Shown here: positions 10,231 to 63,737 of the stretch, piece by piece | How the letters are laid out: each line of letters starts with the position of its first letter | Position numbering within the stretch: position 1 is the first letter of the stretch | Notes under the pieces: model-generated | Database searches by the model: none | Told to the model about the DNA's origin: nothing | Seen by the model: the letters and a program-made list of their open reading frames with translations, nothing else | Source of the DNA: Cnuella takakiae | GTDB taxonomy: Bacteria; Bacteroidota; Bacteroidia; Chitinophagales; Chitinophagaceae | Assembly: GCF_001953305.1 (NCBI RefSeq) | Contig: NZ_MTFE01000010.1 | Location: 4,903,909 to 4,967,908, forward strand | Length of the DNA: 64,000 bases | Direction of reading: 5' to 3' | Translations under genes and position numbers: made by a program

Positions 10231-10322
10231 TTTCTCACAGATGGCACAGATAACACAGATATGTTTTCATACGAATGAACCTTCCGTTATTCACATCTGG
10301 GTCACCAGTGCTATCTGTGAGC
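10231..10322. repeat. Inverted pair of period-9 degenerate repeats
   Basis: The left arm 10231-10260 reads as nine-base units CTCACAGAT, GGCACAGAT, AACACAGAT. The right arm 10295-10322 is its imperfect reverse complement. It starts 5 nt after the stop at 10225. The same word family recurs at 53328-53618. Confidence 0.8.
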
Positions 10323-10369
10323 AAAGAATATAACAAAGGCTATTCCTCATTTAAGCAAACCCCAAAGCC

Positions 10370-10669
10370 ATGCAAGCAGATGCAGCACTTTCCATTTTAC
10401 AGAACCAACAGCGCAGCGCAGGTGATATAGACAAGCTGGCGGCCTTGTTGAATGCCCTGGTCTTGCACGACTTTGAAGGCCTGGTTTATTTTTTATACCG
10501 GGTAGATGTCCCGGAAAAGGAAGTGCGCAGCATACTGCAGCAGGCGCCACAGGAAGACGCAGGCCGTTTGCTGGCGGCACTGTTGCTGCGGCGGCAGGCA
10601 GCTAAGGAACAAAGCCGGCAACAGCTGCGTAAGGACGATACAGACATTCCTGAAGCGGACCGCTGGTGA
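10370..10669 (+). CDS. Small soluble protein, unknown function
   Basis: The product has 99 residues, mostly helical and charged, with an Ala/Leu/Arg-rich middle (LLAALLLRRQAAKEQ). No signal peptide, membrane segment or known motif is visible. The codon pattern looks like that of neighbouring genes, and it is bounded by a repeat upstream and a promoter box downstream at 10767, so it is probably a separate transcript. I do not recognise the family. Confidence 0.5.
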   Translation: MQADAALSILQNQQRSAGDIDKLAALLNALVLHDFEGLVYFLYRVDVPEKEVRSILQQAPQEDAGRLLAALLLRRQAAKEQSRQQLRKDDTDIPEADRW

Positions 10670-10766
10670 AACATGCACTTCATACCGCTCAGCGGCCATA
10701 CATGCAAAACAATTTGCCTGCAATCAATTAAATCCTGCAATCACCACCAATCCAACCATCCGCGAT

Positions 10767-10775
10767 TATTTTTGC
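10767..10775 (+). promoter_or_regulatory. -7 box TATTTTTGC, 3 nt before ATG
   Basis: Perfect TAnnTTTGC. Only GCT separates it from ATG 10779, so this is a second probable leaderless promoter. Confidence 0.55.
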
Positions 10776-10778
10776 GCT

Positions 10779-11921: not shown

Positions 11922-11976
11922 ATCGGTTCCGGTTGCTGGTACCATTTTTTTATGACTTCCGCCAAACAGGAATCAT

Positions 11977-13518
11977 ATGAAACGCGATGGCGCAACTACC
12001 AGCCTTTGGCAGCACAACCTTCCCGACTACCAGCCACAGAACAGTACCCTGCCTACCGATGTGGTGGATGTATTGATTGTAGGTGGTGGCATTACCGGTA
12101 TTACTACGGCCCTGCTGCTGCAACAGGGCGGGCTGCGTTGTGTGGTGGCCGAAGCCCAGACCCTTTGCTTTGGGACAACCGGCGGCACCACCTCGCATAT
12201 CAATTCCTTTTTTGACACCGACTACCATACCATCCGCCAGGACTTTGGGGTGGAGGGCGCCCAAACCGTGGCACGGGCTACCCGGCAGGCCATTGAGCTT
12301 TTTGCCCACCATGTAAAAACTTACAATATCGACTGTGAATTCAGCGAGCGGGATGCCTATGTGTATGCCCAAACCGACGAGCAGGTGAGCCAGTTAAATA
12401 AAATGATGGAAGCGTCGCTGGAAGCGGGTGCCTATGTAGCTTATGCCGACAGCATTCCTATTCCCACCGATTTCCAGAAAGCCATCGTATATCCCCGCAA
12501 TGCGCAGATCCATCCCACAAAGTATGTATTTGCATTAGCAAAGGAGTTTGAAGCCTTAGGCGGTGTTATTCTGCAAAACTGTACGGTTGGCCATGTTGGG
12601 GGCGACGAGCTGATGCTGGAAGCCGAAACCAGCATGGGTGTGATCAAAGCCAAGTACCTGGTGTATGCAACCCATATTCCGCCCGGCGGCATCAACCTGC
12701 TGCACTTCAGGGCACACCCCTACCGCAGCTATGCCATGGCGGTAACGCTGAACAACGAAAGCCAGTACCCCGAATCGCTGGCTTATAACATGTACGATCC
12801 TTACTATTACTACCGCACGCAGGAAACGGATGGCAGGCGTTACCTTATTGTAGGCGGCGAAGATCATAAAACGGCACACGAAGAAAATACCGAAGCCTGT
12901 TTCGACCGGCTGGAGGCACATGTGCGCCGCCATTACGATGTAAAGGAAATAGCATTCAAATGGTCCTCACAATACTTTGAGCCAAGTGATGGCCTTGCCT
13001 ATATCGGCCTCAACCCAGGCACCCACGACAACATCCTTGTGGCAGCAGGATATAGCGGCAATGGCATCACTTACAGCCATATTGCGGCCATTACGCTATC
13101 GCAGATGATCCTGCAAAAACAAAGCGAATACGCCACCCTCTTCAATCCAAGGAGGGTAAAGCCTATTGCAGGTTTTACCGAGTTTGTAAAAGAGAACGTA
13201 GATGTGGTGAAAGAGTTTTTCAGCAAGCGTTTTTCGCAGGAAGAAATAGCTGTGCTGGCCGATCTGGCACCCGGCGAAGCCAAAGTGGTAAAGTTTGAAG
13301 GCGAGTCCATTGCCCTGTATAAAGACGAAGCCGGGAAGCTACATGCCGTAGATCCGATCTGCCCGCACGCCAAGTGCGCCGTAGGCTGGAACCGCGCCGA
13401 AAAAAGCTGGGATTGCCCCTGTCATGGCTCGCGCTTTTCCCCCGATGGACAGCTGCTTACCGGACCGGCAAGGAAAGGGTTGGAGCCGATAGATTTGGCG
13501 AAATTGATGGAAAGCTAA
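11977..13518 (+). CDS. FAD-dependent oxidoreductase with C-terminal Rieske domain
   Basis: The product has 513 residues. The N-terminal DAO-type FAD domain has VLIVGGGITGITTALLL (GGGITG at 36-41). The C-terminal 85 residues form a Rieske domain with ligands C462-P-H464 and C480-P-C-H483. Such DadA-Rieske fusions form a known family thought to pass electrons from an oxidised amine or amino acid, through FAD, to the [2Fe-2S] cluster. The physiological substrate is unknown. No signal peptide is seen, so it is probably cytoplasmic. It is convergent with gldD across an inverted repeat. Confidence 0.9.
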   Translation: MKRDGATTSLWQHNLPDYQPQNSTLPTDVVDVLIVGGGITGITTALLLQQGGLRCVVAEAQTLCFGTTGGTTSHINSFFDTDYHTIRQDFGVEGAQTVARATRQAIELFAHHVKTYNIDCEFSERDAYVYAQTDEQVSQLNKMMEASLEAGAYVAYADSIPIPTDFQKAIVYPRNAQIHPTKYVFALAKEFEALGGVILQNCTVGHVGGDELMLEAETSMGVIKAKYLVYATHIPPGGINLLHFRAHPYRSYAMAVTLNNESQYPESLAYNMYDPYYYYRTQETDGRRYLIVGGEDHKTAHEENTEACFDRLEAHVRRHYDVKEIAFKWSSQYFEPSDGLAYIGLNPGTHDNILVAAGYSGNGITYSHIAAITLSQMILQKQSEYATLFNPRRVKPIAGFTEFVKENVDVVKEFFSKRFSQEEIAVLADLAPGEAKVVKFEGESIALYKDEAGKLHAVDPICPHAKCAVGWNRAEKSWDCPCHGSRFSPDGQLLTGPARKGLEPIDLAKLMES

Positions 13519-13633
13519 TTTGCTAATGTGCTAATTAGCCAATGTGCCAAAAATTTTGCTCTGATGCTAATGGAGTGACAAGTCAATGCCAGCACCCCTT
13601 AGCACATTATCACATTAGCTAATTAGCACATTA
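13514..13633. repeat. Inverted pair of period-8 degenerate repeats between convergent genes
   Basis: The left arm 13514-13548 reads as eight-base units GCTAATTT, GCTAATGT, GCTAATTA, GCCAATGT. The right arm 13601-13633 is its reverse complement, with TAATGTGCTAATTAGC matched exactly. The stop codons of both convergent genes lie inside the arms. Confidence 0.9.
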
Positions 13634-14230
13634 TTTTTTCCACTCCAATGTATTAATCAGCTGCTGCAAATCTCTACGCAGGAAATCATTTACCGGTTGC
13701 AAAGAATCGGCATTGGGCGTGGCGCTGAAGTAAAGGGCGCCGCGTAAAAAATGGCGGGTAGAGTCGGTGATAAAAAACTGGCTGGCTGTAGCGGTATTGC
13801 CTTTCAGATTGAAGAAAACTCCCGATAAGCCCTTAGGAGTCACAAATGGCTCGGGCTCGATGGCGGAGGCTTTATACGTGTGTTGTTTATACGAAAGGGT
13901 AAAGGCATCGTTTACCAGCGAATCAAAATTGTTTGGCTCCACTTCTTTGTAGCTGATATGGATGCGGCCGCCAAACTGCGGGAAATCGATATTGATCCAA
14001 TAGGGATTCTCGGGCCGGCTTTCGAAGAAGGTACTGTCTTTTACCACCACACCGTAAGCTGGGTACTGGAAAGTATAAGGGTAACCCTGCTGATTGAAGG
14101 TTTGGTACCGCTTATCGGGCATGCCGATTTTAAAATAACCGCGTGGCTTGGGTGTGTAATCGGAGTTGCAGGCAAGCAAAAACAGCACACAGGAAAAAAA
14201 CATCAAAAACCGGATACCCATACCGCTCAT
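13631..14230 (-). CDS. gldD: Gliding motility lipoprotein GldD
   Basis: The product has 199 residues. The lipoprotein signal ends FLLAC, followed directly by NSDYTPKPRGYFKIGMPDK. The TPKPRGYF-type motif is the hallmark of GldD. ATG 14221 is an alternative start, three codons in. GldD is one of the lipoproteins needed for gliding and for the type IX secretion apparatus in Flavobacterium johnsoniae. Here it follows gldE by 38 nt, the conserved order in the phylum. Its presence does not prove that the organism glides. Confidence 0.9.
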   Translation of the reverse strand: MSGMGIRFLMFFSCVLFLLACNSDYTPKPRGYFKIGMPDKRYQTFNQQGYPYTFQYPAYGVVVKDSTFFESRPENPYWINIDFPQFGGRIHISYKEVEPNNFDSLVNDAFTLSYKQHTYKASAIEPEPFVTPKGLSGVFFNLKGNTATASQFFITDSTRHFLRGALYFSATPNADSLQPVNDFLRRDLQQLINTLEWKK

Positions 14231-18005: not shown

Positions 18006-18084
18006 ATTATTGATTACTGATTATTGATTATTGCGTTTACACTTCACCTGTAGCCAATAATCAATAATCCAATAATTAATAATC
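18006..18084. repeat. Inverted pair of period-7 degenerate repeats
   Basis: The left arm 18006-18034 is ATTATTG, ATTACTG, ATTATTG, ATTATTG. The right arm 18053-18084 is its near reverse complement. It begins 26 nt after the HU stop. Confidence 0.85.
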
Positions 18085-19393: not shown

Positions 19394-20947
19394 GTGAACA
19401 AAGAACTAATTATCAATGCGGCCACGCATGGCGTGGATATCGCATTACTGGAAGACAAGAAGCTCGTAGAACTGCACACAGAGAAAAACGATGCCCGCTT
19501 TGCCGTGGGTGATCTGTATTTGGGCAAGGTTAAGAAACTCATTCCCGGACTGAACGCAGCATTTGTAGATGTAGGCTTTGAGAAAGATGCCTTTCTGCAC
19601 TATACCGACCTCAGCCCCTATGCCCGCTCCCTGCTCAAATTCACCCAGATGGCTATCAGCGATAAAACGCCGGGTGGAATGGATTTTTCGCAGTTCCAGG
19701 TAGAAGCCGAGATCATCAAGACCGGCAAGATCAACGAAGTACTCAACGGCAAGCCCAACATCCTGGTACAGATCCTCAAGGAACCCATTGCGGCCAAAGG
19801 CCCGCGACTGAGTTGCGAGATCTCCCTGCCGGGTCGTTTTGTAGTGCTCACGCCTTTTAACGACATCGTTGCCGTTTCGCGCAAGATCCACTCTTCGGAA
19901 GAGCGCAAGCGCCTGCAACGTATTGTTGAAAGCATCAAGGGTAAAAACTTTGGCGTCATTGTGCGCACCGCCGCCGAAGGCAAGAACACCGCCGAACTAC
20001 ACGAAGACCTTACCGAATTGCAGAACACCTGGAAGGTGATCCAGCAAAACCTGCATGGCGCCAACCCGCCCCACAAAATCCTCAGCGAGCAAACCAAGAC
20101 CACCAGCATGCTGCGTGACCTGCTCAATGCCGATTTCAACAAAATTGTGGTGAACGATAAGACCATCTATGCCGATGCCAAGGCTTATATCCAGCGCATC
20201 GCACCCGAAAAGGCAGAAATTGTGCAACTGCACAACAACCCGCTGCCCATTTTCGACCAGTATGGTATTACCAAGCAGGTAAAAGGATCTTTCGGCAAAA
20301 CGGTCAACCTCAACTCCGGCGCCTACCTCATTATTGAGCACACCGAAGCCCTCCACGTGATCGACGTGAACAGCGGTTACAAAAGTGTAAGCAATAACCA
20401 GGAGCAAAACGCACTGGAAACCAACCTGGAGGCAGCCGAAGAAATCGCCCGCCAGCTCCGTTTGCGCGATATCGGCGGTATCATCGTGGTGGACTTCATC
20501 GATATGAAGCTGCCCGACAATAAAAAGAAATTAATGGAGGCCATGGAAGGCTTTATGCGTGGCGACCGTGCCAAGCATGCCGTGCTGCCCATCTCCAAGT
20601 TCGGACTCATGCAGATCACCCGTCAGCGCATGAAGCCCGAAATGAACATCAACACCCAGGAAGTATGTCCTTCCTGTAACGGTACCGGAAAAATTTCTTC
20701 TACCCTTATCCTGGAAGACGAGATTGAAAAGAACCTGGGCTACCTCTTTACCCACAAGCACAGCAACCTCACCATCGTGGTGCACCCCATTGTGTACGCC
20801 TATCTTACCAAGGGCTGGCTGTGGAACTCGAAAGTGGCCAAATGGAAACGTAAGTACAAACAGGCCATCACCGTTAAATCGGACAATAACTACATGCTTA
20901 CCGAATTCCGTTTTTACGATGCGAATGGGGAAGAGATTAAAATGTAG
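19394..20947 (+). CDS. rng: Ribonuclease E/G family protein
   Basis: The product has 517 residues from GTG 19394. An N-terminal S1-like RNA-binding region (VGDLYLGKVKKLIPGLNAAFVDVG) is followed by the catalytic domain, with the two metal-binding aspartates in HVIDVNSG and VVDFIDM and the zinc-link CPSCNGTGK. Its length is that of RNase G rather than of full RNase E, because no long C-terminal scaffold is present. It processes rRNA and degrades mRNA. Its place next to the HU-mutY-ssb-gldE-gldD block is conserved in the phylum. Confidence 0.92.
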   Translation: MNKELIINAATHGVDIALLEDKKLVELHTEKNDARFAVGDLYLGKVKKLIPGLNAAFVDVGFEKDAFLHYTDLSPYARSLLKFTQMAISDKTPGGMDFSQFQVEAEIIKTGKINEVLNGKPNILVQILKEPIAAKGPRLSCEISLPGRFVVLTPFNDIVAVSRKIHSSEERKRLQRIVESIKGKNFGVIVRTAAEGKNTAELHEDLTELQNTWKVIQQNLHGANPPHKILSEQTKTTSMLRDLLNADFNKIVVNDKTIYADAKAYIQRIAPEKAEIVQLHNNPLPIFDQYGITKQVKGSFGKTVNLNSGAYLIIEHTEALHVIDVNSGYKSVSNNQEQNALETNLEAAEEIARQLRLRDIGGIIVVDFIDMKLPDNKKKLMEAMEGFMRGDRAKHAVLPISKFGLMQITRQRMKPEMNINTQEVCPSCNGTGKISSTLILEDEIEKNLGYLFTHKHSNLTIVVHPIVYAYLTKGWLWNSKVAKWKRKYKQAITVKSDNNYMLTEFRFYDANGEEIKM

Positions 20948-21150
20948 CTGTTAGCCTTTAGCTGTTGGCTGCTAGCATCTGGCTTCTGCTTCTGGCCAAG
21001 TTTATAAAGTAAAATGCCTCCTGAACGGGAGGCATTTTACTTATACGAACATCTAAGCGGGTTTCATTTCCTAAAAAAAGTACCAGAATCAATTGACTAA
21101 TAACCAAAAGCTGTATTCACTAACCGCCAACAGCTAAGAGCCAATAGCTT
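20944..21150. repeat. Inverted period-7 repeats between convergent genes
   Basis: The left arm 20944-20995 reads TAGCTGT, TAGCCTT, TAGCTGT, TGGCTGC, TAGCATC, TGGCTTC, and the first TAG is the stop codon of the RNase gene. The right arm 21106-21150 is the imperfect reverse complement, ending 7 nt before the SusD stop. A strong terminator is nested inside. Confidence 0.85.
21009..21040. terminator. Bidirectional terminator between RNase G and SusD
   Basis: GTAAAATGCCTCC pairs perfectly with GGAGGCATTTTAC. The T runs serve both strands. Confidence 0.9.
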
Positions 21151-33276: not shown

Positions 33277-33594
33277 CCTCCCCCCTGTACCCCTGAAGGG
33301 GGAACTTAGGCCGGAGTGCCTTTTTGATCCGCCATCTCTCCGGGAGATGGCGGATTTGTTTTTGGAAAAGCTACCAGTTAAGAGCAGCAAGCAACAAGCA
33401 TTAGCGCCAGGTATTTATGGGTCGCTGCATAACACTAACCCACAATTAATTGCACCGGTAACACAAAGCATAAACTATTTGTTGCCCTTGCCAAACCCCT
33501 ACCCTCTTTTGTACCTTACACAAAAGACCTCTTGTGGCAACCAAAAACATCTTCGGCCTAAGTGCCTCCTTCAGGGGGGCAGGGGGTGCCCTCC
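33277..33594. repeat. GC-rich dispersed element, inverted pair 1 (REP-like)
   Basis: The left half 33277-33320 and right half 33554-33594 are inverted copies of a sequence that on the right strand reads CGGCCTAAGT, then C-rich, then G-rich (AGGGGGGCAGGGGGT). The outer ACTCCGGCCTAAGTTCCCCC is shared with the pair at 48531-48813. The right half lies inside the start of comF. Confidence 0.85.
33328..33365 (+). terminator. radA terminator
   Basis: TCCGCCATCTC pairs perfectly with GAGATGGCGGA and is followed by a TTTGTTTTT run. Confidence 0.92.
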
Positions 33595-35229: not shown

Positions 35230-36456
35230 ATGCTGTTTTCGGATGTTATTGGTCAACAAGCAACAAAGCAACACCTTGTTGAAATGGTGCAGCACAACCG
35301 CCTGAGCCATGCCCTGCTTTTCTTGGGCAGGGAAGGCAGCGGTGCCCTGCCCCTGGCCCTTGCTTTTGCCCAGTATATTTCGAGCCTGCCGCAGGACGGC
35401 AACCGGATGCCGGTAGCAGATTCGCTCTTTGGTGGCGACACCCCGCCTCCTACCCTGCCGGCCACCCCCGAGGCGGCCGATGCCTGGATGCAGCAACAGC
35501 CTTCTTTTTCCAAGGCACAGCAGATGGTGCACCCCGACATTCACTATTCTTATCCGGTTATTACCAAAAAAGCGGGCAGCCCGCCCCTGAGCGTTGACTA
35601 TATCGCCGAATGGCGGGAGTTTATACAGCAGTATCCTTACGGCAATGCCTACGACTGGCTCCAGTTTATCAATGCCGAAAACAAACAGGGCAATATTTCG
35701 GCACACGAATGCAACGACATCATCCGCAAGCTCAACCTCAAAAGCTTTGAGAGCGGCTACAAAGTGCTGGTGATGTGGATGCCCGAATACCTGGGCAAGG
35801 AAGGCAATAAGCTGCTCAAACTGATCGAGGAGCCGCCGGCAAACACCCTCTTCATACTGGTAGCCGAAAGTGAAGCGGCCATCCTCAGTACCATCCTGAG
35901 CCGCTGCCAGCTGGTGAAAGTGCCGGCCATTGAAGTTGTGGATGTAGAAAACGCCCTTGTGCGCCGCAACAATACGCCCGCCGACCAGGCCCGTCGCATC
36001 GCCAATATTTCAGAAGGAAACTACCGGGAAGCCTTATCGCTGGTGCAGCATGCCGACGAGGACTATACGGCCCTGCTGCGCGAATGGCTGAATGCCACTG
36101 TTAAGTACCAGCCCGTGGCGCAGGTAAAATGTATTGACGAACTGGCTCGCCTGGGCCGGGAAAACCAAAAGCAGTTCTTGCGCTTTTTCCAACACCTGCT
36201 GGAACTGGCCCTGCGCATGCGGGTGCTGGATGCCGCCGGGCAGGAGCGCCTCGAACAGACTATGTCGGACAGCGAACGCGATTTTGCGGGCAAGCTCAAC
36301 AAGATCTGCACCATCGAACAGCAGGAAGCCATTTCCATCGAACTGGACAATGCCGCCTATTATATCGAGCGCAATGCCAACGCCAAAATGCTGTTTCATG
36401 CCGTGACCATCAAGATGTTCTATATTTTAAGGAATAACGTGGTGGTGGAGCTGTGA
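35230..36456 (+). CDS. holB: DNA polymerase III delta-prime subunit
   Basis: The product has 408 residues from ATG 35230, where MLFSDVIGQQATKQHLVEMV is the conserved start. The AAA+ fold has a degenerate P-loop (GREGSGAL, no Lys), as expected for delta-prime. LGKEGNKLLKLIEEPPANTLFIL and STILSRCQLV are the diagnostic clamp-loader segments. The four-cysteine zinc module normally inserted after the P-loop is absent. Residues 50-100 are Pro/Ala/Gln-rich without cysteine. It loads the sliding clamp in replication. Confidence 0.92.
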   Translation: MLFSDVIGQQATKQHLVEMVQHNRLSHALLFLGREGSGALPLALAFAQYISSLPQDGNRMPVADSLFGGDTPPPTLPATPEAADAWMQQQPSFSKAQQMVHPDIHYSYPVITKKAGSPPLSVDYIAEWREFIQQYPYGNAYDWLQFINAENKQGNISAHECNDIIRKLNLKSFESGYKVLVMWMPEYLGKEGNKLLKLIEEPPANTLFILVAESEAAILSTILSRCQLVKVPAIEVVDVENALVRRNNTPADQARRIANISEGNYREALSLVQHADEDYTALLREWLNATVKYQPVAQVKCIDELARLGRENQKQFLRFFQHLLELALRMRVLDAAGQERLEQTMSDSERDFAGKLNKICTIEQQEAISIELDNAAYYIERNANAKMLFHAVTIKMFYILRNNVVVEL

Positions 36457-36710
36457 ATGGGCAATGGTGAATAGTGAATCGGCAATAACAACCTCCACAT
36501 GTTTTGAAATCTGTAACGTAAAGTTCTAATAACAGAGGTTGTCATGCCGAAACAAGTCCGGCATAGCAACTTCCGAGGCCAAGATGTTATTCAGGCTTAT
36601 GAAGATGTTTATTTTCAAGCTTCAATTACCCCTGATTTGCCTGGTTCGATTGTCATTTCACGTTTGACGATTCCCGATTCCATATTCCCCATTCACGATT
36701 CACGTTTCGG
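36453..36710. repeat. Inverted period-7 repeats after holB
   Basis: The left arm 36453-36486 reads GTGAATG, GGCAATG, GTGAATA, GTGAATC, GGCAATA and contains the holB stop codon. The right arm 36660-36708 is its imperfect reverse complement. A separate hairpin at 36543-36564 (ATGCCG/CGGCAT) lies between them. Confidence 0.85.
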
Positions 36711-44240: not shown

Positions 44241-46190
44241 GTGGCAGACAAAATCTTATTACTTCCCGATAATATCGCCAACCAGATCGCCGCAGGCGAA
44301 GTGATCCAGCGTCCGGCAAGCGCCGTTAAGGAATTGCTGGAAAATGCCGTGGATGCTGGCGCTACCGAAATAAAGCTCATCATCAACGATGCGGGCAAGG
44401 CCCTCGTGCAGGTAATCGACAATGGTTCGGGCATGAGCGAAACCGATGCTCGCATGGCTTTCGAAAGGCATGCCACTTCCAAGATCCGCAACATCGACGA
44501 CCTCTTTCATATCCGCACCATGGGTTTCCGGGGCGAGGCGCTGGCCTCCATTGCTGCCGTTGCTCAGGTGGAACTGCGCACCCGACGCGCCGAAGATGAG
44601 GTGGGCACTTGCCTCGATATCGAGAACAGCATGGTGGTAAACCAGCAGCCTGTGGCGGCACCTGTGGGTACCAGCATCAGCATGAAGAACCTCTTCTTCA
44701 ACGTGCCGGCACGCCGCAATTTCCTTAAAAGCAATCCCGCAGAGATGCGCCACATCGTGGACGAGTTCATGCGGGTGGCACTTGCTTTTCCGGCTATCTT
44801 CTTTTCGCTCCACAGCAACGGGCAGCAGCTCTTCCACCTGGAAGCAGGCTCGCTCAAGCAGCGCATCGTGCAACTGCTCGGCAACCATTACAACCATAAA
44901 CTGGTATCGGTTAAAGAAGAGACCGACTACCTGAACATACAGGGTTTTGTGGGTAAACCCGAAACGGCCAAAAAGACCCGGGGCGACCAGTTCTTTTTTG
45001 TCAACAACCGGTTTATCCGCAGCGCCTACCTCAACCACGCGGTACAGAATGCCTACCAGGAACTGATTCCTGCCGATGCCTTCCCGATGTACGTGCTCTT
45101 TATCGACCTCGACCCCACGCAGGTGGACGTGAACGTACACCCCACCAAGCAGGAGATCAAGTTTGAAGACGAAAAGATTGTGTATGCTTTTGTGCAGGCG
45201 GCGGTAAAACACGCACTGGCGCAGTTCAGCATCACGCCTACTTTGGACTTTGACCTCGATGCGTCCATCCAAAGTCTTGACTCGGTCCAAAAGCCCTATA
45301 CCGAAGAGCAGAAGTCGGCGGCAAGCGGCACTTCGCTGTTCCAGGCATTTACTTCGGCCGGACAAGCCCACAAGATTGAACCCAGCCGCAGCAGCGGTGG
45401 CGGTTTTCCCAGCCTGCGCGATTTCAGCAGCGGCACACCGGCACCTTCTGTTAGCAGCGGTCTTGTTTCACCCGAAGAAGACCTGAAACCCGAACCCGGG
45501 TTCAGCAGCCTGCTGGCAGCCGCCATGGAAACCGTTCCGGAAACGCAGCCGACAGTTGAAACAGCACCGGTGCAAAGCAGCTTTACCAGCCACAGCCAGT
45601 TCACCAGTGCCCCTTCCGGCATCACCGAAGTCAAGCTGACCCAACTTTTTGGTACCTATATCCTGATGCCTGCCGCGCAAAAGTTCCTGCTCATTCACCA
45701 GCAGGCGGCGCATGAGCGCATACTCTACGACCGCCTGGTGCAAAGCATTCAGGGCAAGCCCATCGCCACGCAACGCAGCCTCTTCCCGGCTACCATCGAG
45801 CTGAGCACAGCCGATGCCATGCTATTGGGCGAGCTGGTCCCAGACCTCAACCAGATGGGTTATACCATCGAGCCCTTTGGCAAGAACAGCTTCGTGGTGC
45901 AGGGCACGCCTGCCGATATCACCAGCGGCAACGAACGCATTATCCTGGAACGCATCCTGGAACAGTACAAGCATTTCAACAGCGAACTCAAACTCACCAG
46001 GCGGGAGATGCTGCTCCGCTCCGTAGCCTGGCAACAGGCCATCAAGGCGGGCACTTCATTGAGTGAACGCGAAATGCAGCAGTTGGTAGCCGACCTATTT
46101 GCCTGTGCCACACCCAATGCCACGCCTACCGGAAGGCCCACTTATATGGAGTTCAAGAAGGAGAATCTGGATAAGCAGTTCGGCCGGTAA
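44241..46190 (+). CDS. mutL: DNA mismatch repair protein MutL
   Basis: The product has 649 residues from GTG 44241. The GHKL ATPase has IANQIAAGEVIQRPASAVKE, ENAVDAGAT, DNGSGM and TMGFRGEALASI. A Ser/Pro-rich linker spans about 350-460. In the C-terminal dimerisation domain the endonuclease-type motif DQHA-x2-E-x4-E appears as HQQAAHERILYD (from His486), and the last segment is ATPNATPTGRPTYMEF. MutL couples MutS mismatch recognition to strand incision. Whether this copy is an active nuclease is uncertain. Confidence 0.95.
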   Translation: MADKILLLPDNIANQIAAGEVIQRPASAVKELLENAVDAGATEIKLIINDAGKALVQVIDNGSGMSETDARMAFERHATSKIRNIDDLFHIRTMGFRGEALASIAAVAQVELRTRRAEDEVGTCLDIENSMVVNQQPVAAPVGTSISMKNLFFNVPARRNFLKSNPAEMRHIVDEFMRVALAFPAIFFSLHSNGQQLFHLEAGSLKQRIVQLLGNHYNHKLVSVKEETDYLNIQGFVGKPETAKKTRGDQFFFVNNRFIRSAYLNHAVQNAYQELIPADAFPMYVLFIDLDPTQVDVNVHPTKQEIKFEDEKIVYAFVQAAVKHALAQFSITPTLDFDLDASIQSLDSVQKPYTEEQKSAASGTSLFQAFTSAGQAHKIEPSRSSGGGFPSLRDFSSGTPAPSVSSGLVSPEEDLKPEPGFSSLLAAAMETVPETQPTVETAPVQSSFTSHSQFTSAPSGITEVKLTQLFGTYILMPAAQKFLLIHQQAAHERILYDRLVQSIQGKPIATQRSLFPATIELSTADAMLLGELVPDLNQMGYTIEPFGKNSFVVQGTPADITSGNERIILERILEQYKHFNSELKLTRREMLLRSVAWQQAIKAGTSLSEREMQQLVADLFACATPNATPTGRPTYMEFKKENLDKQFGR

Positions 46191-46450
46191 CCGCAGATTT
46201 GTAAGATTAAAAATGGTTTCTATGAACTATAAAGCAAGTGCCCTACAACTTTGTGGGGCACTTGCTTTTGGAAGCATTCATAACATCCGGTTGGATTTTT
46301 TAAACGCCACCTGAAGTTTCAAGTATCACTTTCTTATCGGAAGCAATTCCTCTGCGCTCTCTGCTCCTCTGCGGCCTCGGCGTGAAACAAAAGGGTTTGC
46401 ACAACTTTAAGATCATACAAGTCATTTCCAATCATATAAATCAGCTGTTC
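46190..46450. repeat. Inverted E-type degenerate repeats after mutL
   Basis: The left arm 46190-46226 begins at the last base of the stop codon with CCGCAGATTTGTAAG. The right arm 46408-46450 is its imperfect reverse complement. A terminator is nested inside. The middle (46348-46390) contains another run of CTCTGCG-type words. Confidence 0.8.
46230..46269 (+). terminator. mutL terminator
   Basis: AAAGCAAGTGCCC pairs with GGGCACTTGCTTT, with a TTTT tail. Confidence 0.9.
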
Positions 46451-48530: not shown

Positions 48531-48813
48531 ACACCCCCTGTCCCCCTAGAGGGGGAACTTAGGTCACACATAACTTTAAACAACAACGCCCCTCTGCAGC
48601 AGAGGGGCGTTGTTGTTTTCTATAAAACCCAATTTGTTTTTTCTTTTTGATTTCGGAATGGGAACGCGGATTGAACGGTTGAAACGGATATCTGTTCCCA
48701 TCTGTTCCATCCGTTTCATCTGTGTTCCCATCAAAACTTAATCTGCAAGACACTATCTAATACCCTCAGCCACTCCGGCCTAAGTTCCCCCTCTAGGGGG
48801 ACAGGGGGTATTA
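48531..48813. repeat. GC-rich dispersed element, inverted pair 2, enclosing further repeats
   Basis: The left half 48531-48568 and right half 48775-48813 are nearly perfect inverted copies of GGCCTAAGTTCCCCCT with the following AGGGGGACAGGGGGT. Each half abuts the stop codon of one of the two convergent genes. Nested inside are a terminator (48581-48618) and an inverted degenerate repeat (48658-48732) built from TGGGAAC, AACGG and CATCTGTTCC words. Confidence 0.9.
48581..48618. terminator. Bidirectional terminator between the M13 and arginase-fold genes
   Basis: CAACAACGCCCCTCTGC pairs perfectly with GCAGAGGGGCGTTGTTG, and TTTT follows. Confidence 0.92.
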
Positions 48814-53327: not shown

Positions 53328-53618
53328 TTTCTCACAGATAACACGGATAGCACGGATGAGTGTAATGGTGGAGAAATTATTTGATAGGCGTTAACATAGG
53401 CTTCGGGGCATTGGTAAATTGTAGCAACCAGGAATGGTGATGGCTTTTGGTTGGAACCACAGCTTCAGCCGGAATGAGATTTAAAACGGAATCCAGCCAA
53501 CACAATCCTATGAAGCTATCATCCTTTCCTCCTGAAACTTCTGGAACTCCTAAAACCTTTTAAACCCATTGAACTCAGTTTCCAAACATCCGTGTCATCC
53601 GTATTATCTGTGAGAACC
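53328..53618. repeat. Inverted period-9 repeats in a divergent promoter region
   Basis: The left arm 53328-53360 reads CTCACAGAT, AACACGGAT, AGCACGGAT. The right arm 53586-53618 is its imperfect reverse complement. Between them, 53529-53576 is another period-9 run (TCCTGAAAC, TTCTGGAAC, TCCTAAAAC, CTTTTAAAC, CCATTGAAC). This is one of the few copies not anchored at a stop codon. Confidence 0.85.
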
Positions 53619-54320: not shown

Positions 54321-55742
54321 ATGCCCCAACAATACGACTTTGGCATGATTGGCCTGGGTGTGATGGGCAGCAACCTGCTGCTCAACCTCGCCGATCACGG
54401 ATATGCAACGATAGGCTATGACCTCAACCCCGAACGCATGCAGGCGCTGGAAGAAGCCGCCCATCCCGGCACGACCGTAAAAGGTGCCGCGGCACTGGCC
54501 GATATGGTGCTGGCACTGAAAAAACCCCGTAAACTGATGATGCTGGTGCCTGCCGGCAAAGCGGTGGATGCGGCGATCACCTCGGTACTACCTTACCTGG
54601 AAGCCGGCGACATCCTGATAGACGGCGGCAACTCGTTTTTTAAAGACACCCTCCACCGTATTGCCTACCTGCAGGACCAGGGCATCCACTTCTTTGGTAT
54701 GGGCATATCGGGTGGTGAGCTGGGTGCCCGCCTCGGTCCCAGCATGATGCCGGGTGGCGACAAGGAAGCCTACCAATACCTCAAACCCTTATTGGAAGCC
54801 GTTGCTGCCAAAACCGACGGCAAGCCCTGTGTTGCCTATATGGGTAGTGGCGCGGCAGGGCACTATGTGAAAATGGTGCACAATGGTATCGAGTATGCCA
54901 TGATGCAGCTTATAGCGGAAGCCTACGACCTGCTGCACCGCGGTGCCGGTTATACCAACGAACAGTTGCAACCCCTTTTCCAGCAATGGAATGAAGGGCC
55001 CCTTCAATCTTTCCTGATTGATATCACCGCAGATATTTTCCGCACCATCGATGCCGAAACCGGCAAGCATGTGGTGGACATCATCCTGGATGAAGCAGGC
55101 TCCAAGGGTACCGGCCGCTGGACCACACAAGAGGCGCTCAACCTGCCCGTTGCCATTCCCTCCATTGATGCAGCCGTGGCTGCCCGCACCATTTCGGGGG
55201 TACGCAGCCAAAGGCTGAAAGCTACCGGGCTGTACCAGCAAGGCAATAACAGCATCGCCAATACCGAAAGCCTGACCCGCGACCTGGAAAGTGCCCTCGT
55301 GGTAGCTTTCCTCTGCGCCTACGCACAAGGCTTGAGCATGATAGCCATGGCCTCCGAAGAAGAAGCCATGCAGATTCCCCTGCCCTCTGTAGTACAGGTT
55401 TGGAAAGGTGGCTGCATCATCCGCTCGGCGCTGCTGGGCAGTTTTGAACAGGCCTTTGCTCAGGATGCCCAACTGCCGAATATTTTGTTGGATGCAAACA
55501 TTGCGGCCCTGGTGCAGCAATACGAGCAGGGCTTGCGCAATACGGTTACGCAGGCCATTGCGGCACGCATACCGGTACCCGCTTTTGCCAGCGCGCTTGC
55601 TTATATCGACAGCTTCCGTAGTGCACAACTGCCTACCAACCTGGTGCAGGCACAAAGGGATTATTTTGGAGCCCACACTTACCGAAGAATAGATAAGGAC
55701 GGCGTGTTTCACACCGAGTGGAACGCAGAAGCCGCAGATTAG
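54321..55742 (+). CDS. gnd: 6-phosphogluconate dehydrogenase (decarboxylating)
   Basis: The product has 473 residues, the standard length. ATG 54321 gives MPQQYDFGMIGLGVMGSNLL, the NADP-binding start. The ATG at 54261 only adds repeat-encoded residues. LIDGGNSFFKDT, GMGISGGELGARLGPSMMPGG, HYVKMVHNGIEYAMMQLIAE and the C-terminal AQRDYFGAHTYRR are diagnostic. It converts 6-phosphogluconate to ribulose 5-phosphate plus CO2 and NADPH. zwf follows, making an oxidative pentose-phosphate pair. No 6-phosphogluconolactonase gene lies beside them. Confidence 0.97.
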   Translation: MPQQYDFGMIGLGVMGSNLLLNLADHGYATIGYDLNPERMQALEEAAHPGTTVKGAAALADMVLALKKPRKLMMLVPAGKAVDAAITSVLPYLEAGDILIDGGNSFFKDTLHRIAYLQDQGIHFFGMGISGGELGARLGPSMMPGGDKEAYQYLKPLLEAVAAKTDGKPCVAYMGSGAAGHYVKMVHNGIEYAMMQLIAEAYDLLHRGAGYTNEQLQPLFQQWNEGPLQSFLIDITADIFRTIDAETGKHVVDIILDEAGSKGTGRWTTQEALNLPVAIPSIDAAVAARTISGVRSQRLKATGLYQQGNNSIANTESLTRDLESALVVAFLCAYAQGLSMIAMASEEEAMQIPLPSVVQVWKGGCIIRSALLGSFEQAFAQDAQLPNILLDANIAALVQQYEQGLRNTVTQAIAARIPVPAFASALAYIDSFRSAQLPTNLVQAQRDYFGAHTYRRIDKDGVFHTEWNAEAAD

Positions 55743-55985
55743 AAGGATTAGAAATGATTTGTATGACCTAAAGACCACAAGCTTGCTTTTGCACCAGGAG
55801 TGATCAATAAAGCCGAGGTCTTTTTTTGAACCAAAGTTGAAGTACGAGCAAGCAGCAAATTTTTTGTCATACATATAAACTATAGAACATTGAAATCATA
55901 CTAATCATTTCTAATCCTACTAATCTGCGGTTCCAGTTCATACAAATCTGCGGTTCACTTTAAATCATACAAATCTGTGGTTATC
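55731..55985. repeat. Inverted E-type repeats between gnd and zwf
   Basis: The left arm 55731-55767 (CCGCAGATT, AGAAGGATT, AGAAATGATT) contains the gnd stop codon. The right arm 55894-55934 is nearly its perfect reverse complement. Two further copies of CATACAAATCTGCGGTTC follow (55939-55956 exact; 55965-55982 with CTGTGGTTA). The last one contains the zwf start codon. Confidence 0.9.
55770..55827 (+). terminator. Possible gnd terminator with a large loop
   Basis: AAAGACC pairs with GGTCTTT across about 40 nt and seven Ts follow. The loop is larger than usual. Confidence 0.4.
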
Positions 55986-57464: not shown

Positions 57465-57550
57465 TGCAGCAGGTAGCTGACAAGCGTAAACAGGAGAAGC
57501 GAAGCGTGTAAGTGCCGTTCGCTTCCCCTGTTTTTACAATACTTTTTCCT

Positions 57551-57670: not shown

Positions 57671-57732
57671 AAGGCAGGCGTAACTGTACTTGGGAAGAAA
57701 GTTGATTGCATTGTCTTGGTCGAAACATTCAA

Positions 57733-60150: not shown

Positions 60151-60300
60151 ACGGCAATGGGGAATGGGCAATCGTGAATAGGGGATCGTAAAACGTGAAA
60201 CGGCAAACGTGAATATGGGATGTCCGTAGCTTTTACTTACCACCCCATTCCTAATACCCAATACCTAATCACTAATCACCATTCACTATTCACCATTCCC
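60151..60300. repeat. Inverted period-7 repeats between convergent genes
   Basis: The left arm 60151-60222 runs about ten seven-base units (GGCAATG, GGGAATG, GGCAATC, GTGAATA, GGGGATC and others). The right arm 60241-60300 is the reverse-complement type (CCTAATA, CCCAATA, CCTAATC, ACTAATC, ACCATTC). It ends 3 nt before the stop of the alcohol dehydrogenase gene. Confidence 0.9.
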
Positions 60301-60302
60301 TT

Positions 60303-61346
60303 CTACAACGTCTTCATATCAATCACAAACCTGTATCGCACATCGCCTTTAATCATGCGGTCGTAAGCTTCGTTCACGTCTTTTGCAGCAATCACTTCCA
60401 CGTCGGAGGTGATGTTGTGCTCGGCGCAGAAGTCCAGCATCTCCTGTGTTTCCTTGATACCACCAATCAGCGAACCGCCGATCTTGCGGCGACCGAAAAT
60501 GAGTGAGAAAGCAGAGATCTGTGCCGGTGTGGGCGGTGCCCCTACGCAGATAAGGGTACCATCCACGTTCAGCATGTTGAGGTACATGCCATAGTCGTGC
60601 TCGGCAGATACCGTGTCGATGATAAAATCAAAGTAGCTGTTGAGGCCTTTCAGTTGCTCGGGGTCCTTGGTGAGGGCAAAGCGGTGGGCACCCAGGCGCT
60701 TGGCATCAGCTTCCTTGGAAGGCGAGGTGCTCAGCATGGTAACTTCGGCACCAAAGGCCACGGCAAATTTCACGGCCATATGACCCAGTCCGCCCAATCC
60801 CAACACACCTACTTTATGGCCTTTGCCCACACCCCAATGGCGCAGGGGCGAGTAGGTAGTGATACCGGCACACAGCAGGGGTGCCACGCCTTCCAGCGGC
60901 AGGCTTTCTGCTACTTTCAGCACAAACTCCTGGCGTACCACGATCTGGTTGGAATATCCACCCTGGTTGGGCGTTTTATCAATACGGTCGTAACCGCCAT
61001 AGGTACCGCTCATACCTTCCACGCAAAACTGCTCGAGGTCGCGTTTGCAGTTGGGGCAGCCCTGGCAGCTGTCTACCATGCAACCCACACCCACCAGGTC
61101 GCCCTGCTTGTAGCGGGTAACGGCAGGCCCTACATTGGTAACACGGCCCACAATTTCATGACCGGGCACATGGGGGTAATAGGTAGGCCCCCACTCGCCA
61201 CGCACGGTGTGGATGTCGGAGTGGCACACACCACAGTAAATAATTTCGATCTGTACATCATTTTCGCGGAGCTCGCGGCGGTCGAACTCCCAGGGCGCCA
61301 GGGGCTCGGTAGCACTATAGGCAGCGTAAGCTTTTGTATGAATCAT
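60303..61346 (-). CDS. Zinc-dependent alcohol dehydrogenase (NADPH-preferring, YahK/CAD-like)
   Basis: The product has 347 residues. Catalytic zinc ligands: Cys38 (CGVCHSDIH), His63-Glu64 (PGHEIVG) and the later Cys in APLLCAGIT. Structural zinc cysteines are in CQGCPNCKRDLEQFC. The cofactor motif is GLGGLGHMAVKFA. The order and spacing match the cinnamyl-alcohol/YahK group, which reduces aldehydes with NADPH. It is monocistronic and diverges from the DUF3109 gene. Confidence 0.93.
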   Translation of the reverse strand: MIHTKAYAAYSATEPLAPWEFDRRELRENDVQIEIIYCGVCHSDIHTVRGEWGPTYYPHVPGHEIVGRVTNVGPAVTRYKQGDLVGVGCMVDSCQGCPNCKRDLEQFCVEGMSGTYGGYDRIDKTPNQGGYSNQIVVRQEFVLKVAESLPLEGVAPLLCAGITTYSPLRHWGVGKGHKVGVLGLGGLGHMAVKFAVAFGAEVTMLSTSPSKEADAKRLGAHRFALTKDPEQLKGLNSYFDFIIDTVSAEHDYGMYLNMLNVDGTLICVGAPPTPAQISAFSLIFGRRKIGGSLIGGIKETQEMLDFCAEHNITSDVEVIAAKDVNEAYDRMIKGDVRYRFVIDMKTL

Positions 61347-61450: not shown

Positions 61451-61523
61451 GGACAACTGACGACGGACGACGGACAACAGACGACTCCTGGATCCGTAGT
61501 CGGTCGTCTGTTGTCCGTCGTCA
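61451..61523. repeat. Inverted period-7 repeat in a divergent region
   Basis: Units GGACAAC, TGACGAC, GGACGAC, GGACAAC, AGACGAC. GACGACGGACAACAGACGAC (61466-61485) has a perfect 20-bp inverted copy at 61503-61522 around a TCC-rich loop. Confidence 0.9.
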
Positions 61524-61618: not shown

Positions 61619-61627
61619 TACCTTTGC
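61619..61627 (+). promoter_or_regulatory. -7 box TACCTTTGC, 3 nt before ATG
   Basis: Perfect TAnnTTTGC, separated from ATG 61631 by ACT only. This is the third case of the same spacing in the window, so the mRNA is probably leaderless. Confidence 0.55.
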
Positions 61628-61630
61628 ACT

Positions 61631-62224
61631 ATGATTCAGATCGATAATGTGGTACTGGCCGACGAGGTGGTGGAAGCCAAATTTGTGTGTGACCTTGCCA
61701 AGTGCAAGGGCGGTTGCTGCGAAGACGGCGATGCCGGCGCACCCGTAACCGAGGAGGAAATGGAAATAGTGCGCAAAAACCTGGCAGCCATCCTGCCCTA
61801 CCTCACCGCTGAAGGGCGCCTGGAGCTGGAGCGCCAGGGCCTGTTTACCCACGACGATGAGTTTGGCTACGTAACCCCCGTTATGAAGGACGGTCTTTGC
61901 GCCTATGGCACCCGCGATGCGGCAGGTATTATCAAGTGCGGCATCGAAGCGGCCTACAATGATGGCAAGCTGGGATGGAAAAAACCCATCTCCTGTCACC
62001 TGTTTCCCATACGCCTCATCGAGACCAGTGGTTATACCATGGCCAACTACGAGCCACGCGATGTATTGTGCAAACCAGCCTGTGCTTTTGGCAAAAAACT
62101 AAAAGTTCCGGTATACCAGTTCTTAAAAGAGCCATTGGTCCGTAAATTCGGACAGGAGTTCTACGACACCCTCCACCAGATAGCAGTGGAACATTTTGAC
62201 ATAACCACACCAAACCGGAAATAA
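61631..62224 (+). CDS. DUF3109 family cysteine-rich protein
   Basis: The product has 197 residues. VCDLAKCKGGCCEDGDAGAP near residue 20, the middle Cys in GLCAYG and KCGIEAAY, then SCHLFPIR and CKPACAFGKK give the cysteine pattern of DUF3109, resembling the YkgJ/CxxCxxCC zinc-iron chelatase-like proteins. The biochemical role is unknown. It starts next to its -7 box and ends 4 nt before the LutB-like gene, so the two form an operon and may share an iron-sulfur role. Confidence 0.87.
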   Translation: MIQIDNVVLADEVVEAKFVCDLAKCKGGCCEDGDAGAPVTEEEMEIVRKNLAAILPYLTAEGRLELERQGLFTHDDEFGYVTPVMKDGLCAYGTRDAAGIIKCGIEAAYNDGKLGWKKPISCHLFPIRLIETSGYTMANYEPRDVLCKPACAFGKKLKVPVYQFLKEPLVRKFGQEFYDTLHQIAVEHFDITTPNRK

Positions 62225-62228
62225 TACT

Positions 62229-63602
62229 ATGGCCGAACAAGCCGCCACCTTTATAGCCAAGAGCACCATCAAGGCTTCCGACCGCGAGCACCGCCGCAAG
62301 ATCAACTTCAACATTTCGAAGTACAATGCCGTGGTGCCTGTGGGCAAAAAGCAGTTTACCGATGTGGAAGCAGCCCGCCGCATTGCCAAGATGCGCAAGT
62401 GGGAAGCCATCGAGACCTTGGACCAACAGCTCGAAACTTTTGAACGCCAGATCACCAGCCGCGGTGCCAAAGTGCTGTGGGCCGAAACCACTGAGCAGGC
62501 GCTTGCGGAAATAGGAAAGATCTGTGCGGCCAAGGCCTGCAAGACGGTGGTGAAGAGCAAGAGCATGGTGACGGAGGAAATCCACCTCAATGCCTATCTG
62601 GAAAAGCAGGGCATCGAAAGCGTGGAGACCGACCTCGGCGAGTACATACAGCAACTGGATGGCGAAGCGCCTTACCATATTGTAACGCCCGCCATGCACA
62701 AGAGCAAGGAAGACGTTGCCCGCCTCTTTCACGAAAAGCTAGGTACCGACATTAACCTCACACCCAGCGAGCTCACCCTTGTTGCCCGCGACAAGCTGCG
62801 GGCCAAGTACGCCGCTGCCGAAGTAGGTGTAACCGGCGCCAACTTTATCGTTGCCGATGTGGGTGGTATTGCCGTTACCGAAAATGAAGGCAATGCCCGC
62901 CTGAGTTGCTCCTACCCCAAAACGCATATCGTTATTGTGGGTATCGAAAAGGTCATTCCTTCCATCAACGACCTGCCCCTGTTCTGGCCCCTGCTGGCCA
63001 CCTTTGGTACGGGCCAGAAAGTGACGGTGTACAACACCCTTGTTACCGGCCCGCGCCAGCCCGGTGAAGTGGACGGACCCGAAGAGATGTACGTGATCCT
63101 GCTGGACAATGGCCGCACCAACCTGCTGGCCAATCCCAAGAGCCGCGAGGCGCTGTACTGCATCCGTTGTGGTGCCTGTCTCAACGCCTGCCCGGTGTAT
63201 AAAAATATTGGCGGACACGCATACGAAACTACCTACAGCGGTCCCATCGGATCCGTGATCACACCCCACCTGCGGGGAATGGACAGCTGGAAGCACCTGA
63301 GCTACGCCTCCTCGCTTTGCGGCAACTGTACCGAAGTGTGCGCCGTAAAGATCAACCTCCACGAGTTGCTGCTGGAAAACCGCCACGAAGCGGTGGAAGA
63401 AGGCGCGTCCACCGTGGCCGAACGTACGGCATGGAAATTATGGAAACAGGCTATGATGCACCGCACCCTGATGAACCTGGCACCCGGCAACCTGAAAGGT
63501 TGGGTAATCAACAGGTTTGTGACGGAATGGAAGGCCCACCGTGGCGAACTGGACTTCCCGAAGAAAAGCTTCAACCAGTTGTGGCGGGAAGGGAAGAGAT
63601 GA
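62229..63602 (+). CDS. LutB/LldF-type iron-sulfur protein (LUD domain)
   Basis: The product has 457 residues. The LUD domain spans about 60-300 (VVKSKSMVTEEI, GVTGANFIVADVGGIAVTENEGN). A ferredoxin-like region follows, with CIRCGACLNACPVYKNIGGHAY and CGNCTEVCAVKI, where the usual Pro after the fourth Cys is Ala. LutB is the iron-sulfur subunit of the LutABC L-lactate-oxidising complex. LutA and LutC are not adjacent here, so participation in lactate oxidation is inferred only from family membership. It ends 168 nt before the next gene. Confidence 0.9.
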   Translation: MAEQAATFIAKSTIKASDREHRRKINFNISKYNAVVPVGKKQFTDVEAARRIAKMRKWEAIETLDQQLETFERQITSRGAKVLWAETTEQALAEIGKICAAKACKTVVKSKSMVTEEIHLNAYLEKQGIESVETDLGEYIQQLDGEAPYHIVTPAMHKSKEDVARLFHEKLGTDINLTPSELTLVARDKLRAKYAAAEVGVTGANFIVADVGGIAVTENEGNARLSCSYPKTHIVIVGIEKVIPSINDLPLFWPLLATFGTGQKVTVYNTLVTGPRQPGEVDGPEEMYVILLDNGRTNLLANPKSREALYCIRCGACLNACPVYKNIGGHAYETTYSGPIGSVITPHLRGMDSWKHLSYASSLCGNCTEVCAVKINLHELLLENRHEAVEEGASTVAERTAWKLWKQAMMHRTLMNLAPGNLKGWVINRFVTEWKAHRGELDFPKKSFNQLWREGKR

Positions 63603-63737
63603 GTAAGGAGTGATAAGTGAATGGTGATTGGTGATTAGGTATTGGGTATTTAGTATCCATGAACAAATGTCACCTTATATGCATGTTTGACGTTTGACGT
63701 TTCACCGTTCACGATTCACCATTCATCACTCACCATC
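63602..63737. repeat. Inverted period-7 repeats after the LutB-like gene
   Basis: The left arm 63602-63658 (GAGTAAG, GAGTGAT, GGTGATT, GGTGATT, AGGTATT, GGGTATT) starts at the stop codon. The right arm 63685-63737 (TGTTTGA, CGTTTGA, CGTTTCA, CCGTTCA, CGATTCA, CCATTCA, TCACTCA) is the inverted type. Confidence 0.88.

What the first reader, a model, noticed from the sequence alone, without database searches (positions are those of the whole stretch)
10231..63737. Family of intergenic inverted repeats with arms built from degenerate 7-, 8- or 9-base tandem words
At least a dozen gaps (10231, 13514, 18006, 20944, 36453, 46190, 53328, 54128, 55731, 60151, 61451, 63602 and others) each hold two inverted arms. 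Every arm is a run of near-identical short units: GTGAATG-type at 36453, ATTATTG-type at 18006, GGACAAC-type at 61451, GCTAATNN (period 8) at 13514, CACAGATNN (period 9) at 10231. Words differ between loci but period, inversion and position recur, and within an arm units vary at one or two positions. Seven or more begin on or within about 12 nt of a stop codon. They are not simple terminators, because separate T-tailed terminators are nested inside or beside several. This points to a common generating or selective process, such as slippage-prone replication hairpins, mRNA 3-prime stabilisers or targets of a protein. I know of no described system that fits, but I could not search.
Basis: seen in the sequence. 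Interest (0 to 1): 0.8.

Follow-up and report, generated by a model that had tools for sequence, protein, structure and literature searches.

The report
Paired short-word arrays edging gene gaps
Many gaps between genes in this bacterium are bordered by two facing runs of short, near-identical DNA words; related species often have such runs in the same gap but sometimes with different words, and their function is unknown.

Summary
All 12 named loci hold inverted arms beyond shuffled sequence; one (54128) has no tandem words. In 864 kb of this genome, 84 of 559 gaps carry long-loop inverted repeats against 0 of 559 shuffled, and arm self-similarity peaks at 7, 8 and 9 nt. It is not one family but a species vocabulary: one 8-nt class, picked from this genome, matches 124 times here and 0-18 times in 17 same-genus genomes. 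Arms hug stop codons, not starts (weakly in a second genome). Words have a fixed handedness: of 97 gaps with both orientations 92 simply face inward, 1 outward. Between two relatives (72 orthologous gaps) occupancy is shared beyond chance (odds ratio 8.25), yet at 4 gaps both arms have unrelated words. Concerted changes are rare (2 of 20 changed columns, 4 loci). I favour dispersing arrays, written as facing pairs and turning over quickly in dispensable DNA; a transcript-boundary role is the main rival. Closest precedent: paired tandem 7/8-mers of Geobacter metallireducens, called putative regulator-binding sites.

The parts
10231..10263 (+). left arm, CACAGATNN (period 9)
10292..10324 (-). 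right arm
13514..13546 (+). left arm, TAATGTGC/GCTAATNN (period 8), begins inside the 3' end of 11977-13518
   Evidence: word class has 124 matches genome-wide
13599..13633 (-). right arm, reaches the stop codon of the gldD-like gene 13631-14230
18006..18033 (+). left arm, ATTATTG (period 7)
18055..18083 (-). right arm
20946..20975 (+). left arm, AGCTGTTAGC words, overlaps the RNase E/G-family stop codon
21120..21149 (-). right arm, 7 nt from the stop of the convergent gene; a T-tailed hairpin lies between the arms
36453..36486 (+). left arm, GTGAATG (period 7)
36664..36708 (-). right arm
46189..46234 (+). left arm, CCGCAGATTTGTATGATT family, overlaps the stop of the mutL-like gene
46405..46449 (-). 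right arm
53329..53358 (+). left arm, CACGGATAN (period 9)
53587..53616 (-). right arm
55728..55766 (+). left arm, CCGCAGATT..GATT family, overlaps the stop codon of the 6PGD-like gene (55742)
55896..55933 (-). right arm
60151..60186 (+). left arm, GTGAATGG-type words; a T-tailed hairpin lies upstream, outside the arms
60242..60300 (-). right arm, ends next to the stop of the convergent gene 60303-61346
61451..61485 (+). left arm, GGACAAC (period 7), divergent gap
61496..61523 (-). right arm
63602..63656 (+). left-arm region, GTGAATGGTGATTGG words, begins at the stop of 62229-63602
63685..63736 (-). right-arm region, GTTTGAC then TTCACCA words
33281..33586 (.). different class: CCCCCTGTCCCCCTNNAGGGGGAACTTAGG inverted pair (arms 33281-33316, 33551-33586)
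48533..48809 (.). same CCCCCTGTCCCCCT class (arms 48533-48563, 48779-48809)

Best explanation
These are dispersing, fast-turning-over arrays rather than one element family. Shown: many gaps carry two short arrays of degenerate 7-, 8- or 9-nt words that face inward and are drawn from a word pool typical of the species; arrays differ between relatives by whole units; at some gaps both arms, at one gap one arm, differ in word between relatives while the gap stays occupied. Inferred: new arrays are copied into gaps from existing ones by non-allelic recombination or template switching, written as inverted pairs, lengthened by slippage, and survive only in dispensable DNA, which runs from the upstream stop codon to the leader of the next gene. 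Handedness would be kept because the pair is copied as a unit and because leaders here are poor in G. No sequence-specific function is required, though a weak role at transcript ends may help retention.
For: Species word pool: TTAGCACATTNNCNNATTAGC (up to 1 mismatch; picked from this genome, so some excess here is expected) matches 124 times here, 0-18 in 17 same-genus genomes, reversed-pattern control 0; GTGAATGG words 87 here. Arrays: 263 of 266 intergenic. Handedness: cross-locus arm matches same-handed 204, reversed 6. Turnover in the 83%-identical pair G006/G014, by reading: unit-step differences (106237, 73221), both arms with unrelated words (4273, 18055, 40001, 91526), one arm alone different (76656). 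In four homologous arm pairs 15 of 20 changed columns are one-sided, 2 concerted. Spacers of tandem-word loci are hardly related between loci (5 of 20 hits, 81 spacers). On stop sides 33 of 92 arms overlap the stop codon or gene end; on start sides 2 of 80 reach 1-3 nt into the gene and none farther. Arm-free start sides read outward are richer in G than C, i.e. leaders are G-poor.
Against: Occupancy of orthologous gaps is shared beyond chance (11 both, 6 and 10 single, 45 neither; odds ratio 8.25, P 0.0005; gap length not controlled, some weak A/T-rich repeats included), which suggests selection or a hot spot. Median distance to a stop is 5 nt in this genome, tighter than random survival predicts. 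No copying event was seen; the closest pair compared had 83% identity. Own arms score better than cross-locus arms in all 13 families of three or more loci, but arms were chosen for their own pairing, so this is partly by construction and does not prove that pairs are written together. No machinery was identified.
Confidence: 0.4

Rival explanations
1. Selected transcript-boundary elements: facing arrays act as bidirectional fail-safe terminators or RNA 3'-end barriers; the exact word does not matter, so words drift while positions stay. In a Rho version the second arm read in either direction is G-poor with C at 7-9 nt steps, like a Rho loading site.
For: Shared occupancy with changing words; stop sides within 12 nt 67 of 98 vs 8 of 70 start sides; convergent 25 of 80, tandem 48 of 384, divergent 11 of 95 gaps; YC share of C on the G-poor strand 0.566 vs shuffled 0.525 +- 0.010.
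Against: Arms also on start sides and in divergent gaps; intrinsic terminators neither enriched nor depleted; the YC excess is small and the core of the TAATGTGC word lacks YC; adjacency is weak in G006 C21 (8 of 19 vs 4 of 17 within 12 nt). Rho spacing is recalled and comes from no call.
Confidence: 0.3
2. Binding arrays for one or more proteins that read tandem words, as proposed for Geobacter metallireducens; words change with the reader.
For: Fixed word handedness (204 vs 6; 92 vs 1 gaps); species word pools; similar anatomy was so interpreted in PMC2700814 (passages).
Against: Ten tandem-word families of three or more loci in 864 kb (13 families, less three palindromic ones) would need many readers; no reader was searched for and no regulon test was made.
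Confidence: 0.15
3. Miniature inverted-repeat or REP/REPIN-type mobile units moved by a transposase.
For: Inverted ends and dispersed copies; the CCCCCTGTCCCCCT class has related spacers, and one G014 copy faces a short gap without it in G006.
Against: Tandem-word loci share almost no spacer homology; no PF01797 match in G005 and G008, yet G008 (84% complete) has arms after RNase G by reading and G005 one periodic pair; one arm can differ alone.
Confidence: 0.08
4. Scars of double-strand-break repair with snap-back or telomere-like end extension: each end gets the same words, the C-poor strand being the new 3' strand, then the ends are joined.
For: C-poor strands facing inward at both edges; the core fails to align in 4 of 67 measured gaps, 3 of which are gaps where, by reading, both species carry arms with different words.
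Against: No Ku and no RVT_1 match in this 99.68% complete, arm-rich genome, though most same-genus relatives have Ku (15 of 17) and some have RVT_1; one word shared by many loci needs a genomic template; spacers scored as homologous in 12 of 21 tests.
Confidence: 0.05

Closest known systems
Paired tandem-repeat sites, classes 1-3, of Geobacter metallireducens (PMC2700814; passages read; supplements not seen)
   Same: Tandem octa- or heptanucleotides (GTTGCTYN, TCTCCGTS[Y], MTYCTGA) in sites mostly paired on opposite strands, at variable distance for classes 1 and 2; 24, 21 and 8 pairs. A fourth class is said to resemble multicopy sequences in many genomes.
   Different: Here many more word classes in one genome, stop-codon adjacency, a handedness rule and word change at shared positions; the passages read describe none of these. 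Function there is a proposal (unknown regulator, or IHF/HU).
TAACTGA direct repeats of marine Beggiatoaceae, Cyanobacteria and five Bacteroidetes (PMC4679880; abstract and passages read)
   Same: Intergenic tandem heptamers, also in Bacteroidota; some sets split by related 7-mers.
   Different: One word; direct repeats (one indirect case); mostly just upstream of start codons in the main genome.
Long simple sequence repeats of 5-11 nt (Mrazek 2007, as described in PMC4679880; original not read)
   Same: Heptanucleotides commonest in most genomes; polymerase slippage proposed.
   Different: No inverted pairing mentioned in the passage read.
REP-type repeats (PMC3733652, search listing only) and the P. 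gingivalis BrickBuilt MITE (PMC4596501, abstract)
   Same: Intergenic, dispersed; BrickBuilt combines a tandem repeat with inverted ends.
   Different: One palindromic or 23-nt unit per family; here arms are degenerate 7-9-mer arrays with unrelated spacers.
Template-switch origin of inverted repeats (Ladoukakis and Eyre-Walker, as cited in PMC4060949, passages)
   Same: Proposes that imperfect inverted repeats are corrected by template switching.
   Different: Concerns short repeats in coding sequence; concerted changes were rare here.

Membership tests
Geobacter metallireducens paired tandem-repeat sites | arrays of tandem 7- or 8-nt units | tested here: met
Geobacter metallireducens paired tandem-repeat sites | pairs on opposite strands at variable distance | tested here: met
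Geobacter metallireducens paired tandem-repeat sites | bound by a global regulator (proposed only) | not testable with these tools
   no binding data
REP/REPIN with RAYT | dependence on a Y1 (RAYT) transposase | tested here: not met
   no PF01797 match in G005 and G008, which carry arms; G008 is 84% complete
REP/REPIN with RAYT | GTAG/CGTC-tagged palindrome | not tested
   tag not scanned; feature known from a search listing (PMC3733652)
MITE | related interior between copies | tested here: not met
   20 hits among 81 spacers, 15 within the CCCCCT class, 5 elsewhere
MITE | target-site duplication | not tested
   no test made
Intrinsic terminator | short loop and T-run | tested here: not met
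   arms were required to have loops >=16 and reach several hundred nt; T-tailed hairpins are separate features
Rho utilisation site | regularly spaced YC on G-poor RNA | tested here: inconclusive
   YC share 0.566 vs 0.525 +- 0.010 shuffled; spacing itself not tested
Known structured RNA | Rfam covariance match | tested here: not met
   0 matches in the window at gathering scores

The most novel reading that the evidence does not exclude
Intergenic gaps act as addresses at which the cell repeatedly writes a matched, inward-facing pair of word arrays; the address persists across species while the word is swapped for another from a species vocabulary, as if a fast-evolving reader or writer recognised handed tandem 7/8-mers at gene borders. 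The same grammar (period 7-8, facing, C-poor strand first) appears in two Chloroflexi contigs and one Methylacidimicrobium contig.
Probability: 0.13. Interest if true: 0.9.

Novelty: new variant of a known kind. Interest (0 to 1): 0.6.

Why it matters
About one gap in seven of the sampled sequence (84 of 559) carries such a long-loop inverted repeat, most of them built of tandem words. The pattern gives testable rules (period, handedness, stop-side placement, word change at shared addresses) and links scattered notes on heptamer repeats to one phenomenon. If the addresses are selected, they mark transcript or domain boundaries in distant bacteria; if not, they expose a mutation process that writes inverted tandem words.

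Tried and rejected
Single dispersed element: disfavoured for tandem-word loci, since spacers are unrelated. RAYT requirement: no PF01797 match in G005 and G008. Ku or reverse-transcriptase requirement: no match in this genome. Terminator association: none. Base-pair maintenance: 2 concerted of 20 changed columns in only 4 loci.

Polarity as a hallmark was tempered by a control. Arms lean G>C inward (71 vs 12, 4 ties, of 87), but arm-free gap edges lean the same way (stop side 182 vs 117 of 322; start side 300 vs 79 of 406), as do weak real repeats (84 vs 55, 19 ties), while short-loop hairpins (79 vs 74) and repeats of shuffled gaps (69 vs 68) do not. The arms' excess is clear on stop sides (72 vs 16 of 94) and modest on start sides (67 vs 7 of 80). 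Over all 84 gaps at score >=34 it is 63 vs 18, 3 ties. In relatives the 38 periodic pairs give 31 vs 5, 2 ties, in G006 C21 9 vs 2. Of 32 families, 23 lean G>C and 9 C>G; of the 16 with two or more loci, 15 lean G>C. One search tested '16 of 17' by mistake; that p value is not used.

Limits: one search dropped 23 of 110 loci by hand-picked palindromic strings before the 87-locus counts, and some ordinary palindromes remain; one search lost one more locus (86). The array search used arms of paired loci as queries, so lone arrays are undercounted. Gene calls are mine and rough; some divergent gaps may be miscalled and short samples yield few genes. One search ended in an error in its last part, redone. 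An earlier count said that all 12 lone arrays of convergent gaps adjoin a stop; the list shows 9 of 12 within 19 nt of the stop they read away from, so that entry is superseded. Word comparisons were made by eye.

Literature searches: (open PMC papers only). No listing showed a paper on facing pairs with handedness and turnover; this is not proof of absence.
Full report
Setting. The window is part of a 5.7 Mb genome, 99.68% complete. Rfam gives no match in the window and ARAGORN no tRNA.

Observation. I took 864 kb of contiguous sequence ending with the window, called genes with a simple codon-pair model (675 genes), and scored long-loop inverted repeats in 559 gaps. Score >=34: 84 gaps, shuffled 0; >=30: 110, shuffled 0. 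Arm autocorrelation is 0.38 at lag 7, 0.34 at 8, 0.31 at 9, 0.36 at 14 and 0.31 at 16, against 0.24-0.27 at the other lags from 3 to 18. 47 of 110 loci have individually periodic arms at p<=0.02, 2.2 expected; periods 7 (29), 8 (10), 9 (7), 11 (1). In samples of 20 related genomes, 86 of 873 gaps score >=30 against 1 of 873 shuffled; the 38 periodic ones have period 7 (26), 8 (11) or 11 (1). A further 400 kb of G006 gives 18 of 256 vs 0, with 11 periodic (7: 5; 8: 6). Density differs: 9 of 57 gaps in G010 but 2 of 53 in G013.

Anatomy. Arms sit next to stop codons in this genome: 67 of 98 stop sides within 12 nt (median 5), 8 of 70 start sides (median 54). With longer flanks (86 loci), 33 of 92 stop-side arms overlap the stop codon or gene end and 4 more start right after it; of 80 start-side arms 2 reach 1-3 nt into the gene and none farther. 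G006 C21 shows this only weakly: 8 of 19 vs 4 of 17 within 12 nt. Frequency is 25 of 80 convergent, 48 of 384 tandem and 11 of 95 divergent gaps; in G006 C21 3 of 45, 13 of 157 and 2 of 54.

Handedness. Comparing arms between loci, 204 strong matches are same-handed and 6 reversed; within families, reversals appear only in two palindromic classes. Mapping arrays by arm similarity found 266, of which 3 lie in called genes. Of 144 gaps with arrays, 97 have both orientations: 92 simply face inward, 1 is back-to-back, 4 are compound. Lone arrays mostly fit: in tandem gaps 9 read away from the stop and lie within 29 nt of it, and 21 have the other orientation, 16 of them nearer the start than the stop; in convergent gaps 9 of 12 lie within 19 nt of the stop they read away from. 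The inward strand is C-poor (C 0.121, G 0.281). A control shows arm-free gap edges lean the same way more weakly, so composition alone is no hallmark; fixed word orientation is.

Vocabulary. One 8-nt class has 61 forward and 63 reverse matches here, 0-18 in 17 same-genus genomes and 0-2 in the other 20 relatives, control 0; the pattern was picked from this genome. GTGAATGG words: 87 here, and matches in 13 of 98 other genomes drawn across the phylum; two genomes of one distant family match the reversed control 35 and 68 times, which suggests other words in use there. Among 78 contigs over 5 kb from many phyla (1.43 Mb), period 7-9 pairs occur in four: L071 and L111 (Chloroflexi), L125 (Methylacidimicrobium) and L084 (Zipacnadia, compound blocks); the first three have the C-poor strand first.

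Turnover. After gldD and after the RNase E/G gene some relatives have arms with other words, for example GTGAGTGG words in G014 and GACGTCAGACG words in G009 after gldD, GATGTCTGAT words in G016 and G012 after RNase G; others have none there (by eye). G006 and G014 share 107 kb at 83% identity, 96 reciprocal best hits at 88% and 72 orthologous gaps; with the plain threshold of 30, 3 gaps have repeats in both, 14 in one. With a per-gap shuffle test both have a pair in 11, one in 16, neither in 45 (Fisher P 0.0005; weak A/T-rich repeats included, gap length not controlled). By reading, words are unrelated in both arms at 4273, 18055, 40001 and 91526; at 76656 only the left arm differs, leaving arms that no longer pair in G014 but keep handedness; at 49310 G014 has two different words in its two arms; at 73221 and 106237 unit numbers differ. 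The core aligns in 40 of 41 arm-free gaps; it fails in 4 of 67 overall, including 18055, 40001 and 91526. In 21 tests, spacer, left arm and right arm were homologous to the orthologous gap in 12, 12 and 11. In four homologous arm pairs, 15 of 20 changed columns break a pair in one species and 2 are concerted.

Mechanism. The data fit arrays that spread between gaps, are laid down as facing pairs, change by units and are tolerated in dispensable DNA. Copying itself is inferred. That own arms match better than cross-locus arms in all 13 families of three or more loci is partly by construction, because arms were chosen for their own pairing; the better evidence for coupling is that both arms carry the same new word at four gaps. 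Shared occupancy and tight stop adjacency could instead mean selection for a transcript boundary; I give that 0.3. A Rho reading gains only slight support (YC 0.566 vs 0.525). A moving single element is disfavoured by unrelated spacers, except for the CCCCCTGTCCCCCT class, which has related spacers and one copy in G014 facing a short gap in G006. No Ku or RVT_1 match exists in this genome, although 15 of 17 same-genus relatives have Ku.

Comparison. Closest is G. metallireducens: 24, 21 and 8 pairs of sites built of tandem octa- or heptanucleotides on opposite strands, proposed to bind unknown regulators or IHF/HU (PMC2700814, passages). The present case adds a large vocabulary, handedness, stop placement and turnover. 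Hence a new variant of a known but barely studied kind.

Noticed in passing
33281-33586 and 48533-48809: A 31-nt word ACCCCCTGTCCCCCTNNAGGGGGAACTTAGG forms inverted pairs in 12 gaps of 864 kb, some with related spacers; a G014 copy faces a short gap without it in G006. A separate, MITE-like class.
   Followed up: partly
57550-57671: Inverted pair TGGCATCCTGAGCGCAGCGAAGGG / CCCTTGCCGCGCTCAGGATGCCA around an inner AAATGCAAATGCG hairpin; REP-like, not tandem-word.
   Followed up: no
864 kb segment, window offsets -71736 and -329847: Other palindromic repeats: TGTCATGCCGAACTTGTTTCGGCATCTCC and AAACCGTTGAAACGGTTT with CCCACGGTTAAAACCGTGGG.
   Followed up: no
G048 and G053: The reversed control of the GTGAATGG pattern matches 35 and 68 times, suggesting a different tandem-word vocabulary in that family.
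   Followed up: no
L084; window 46349-46382: Zipacnadia contig with alternating CTCTGTGTTCTCGGTG and CACAGAGACACCGAG blocks, resembling the CCTCTGCG words of the window and the class 2 consensus of Geobacter.
   Followed up: no
arm-free gap edges: Leaders in this genome are G-poor in the sense strand (start side read outward: G 0.259, C 0.169).
   Followed up: partly
54138-54277: An 18-nt inverted pair lies in the end of one reading frame (cytochrome-like) and the start of the next (6PGD-like).
   Followed up: no
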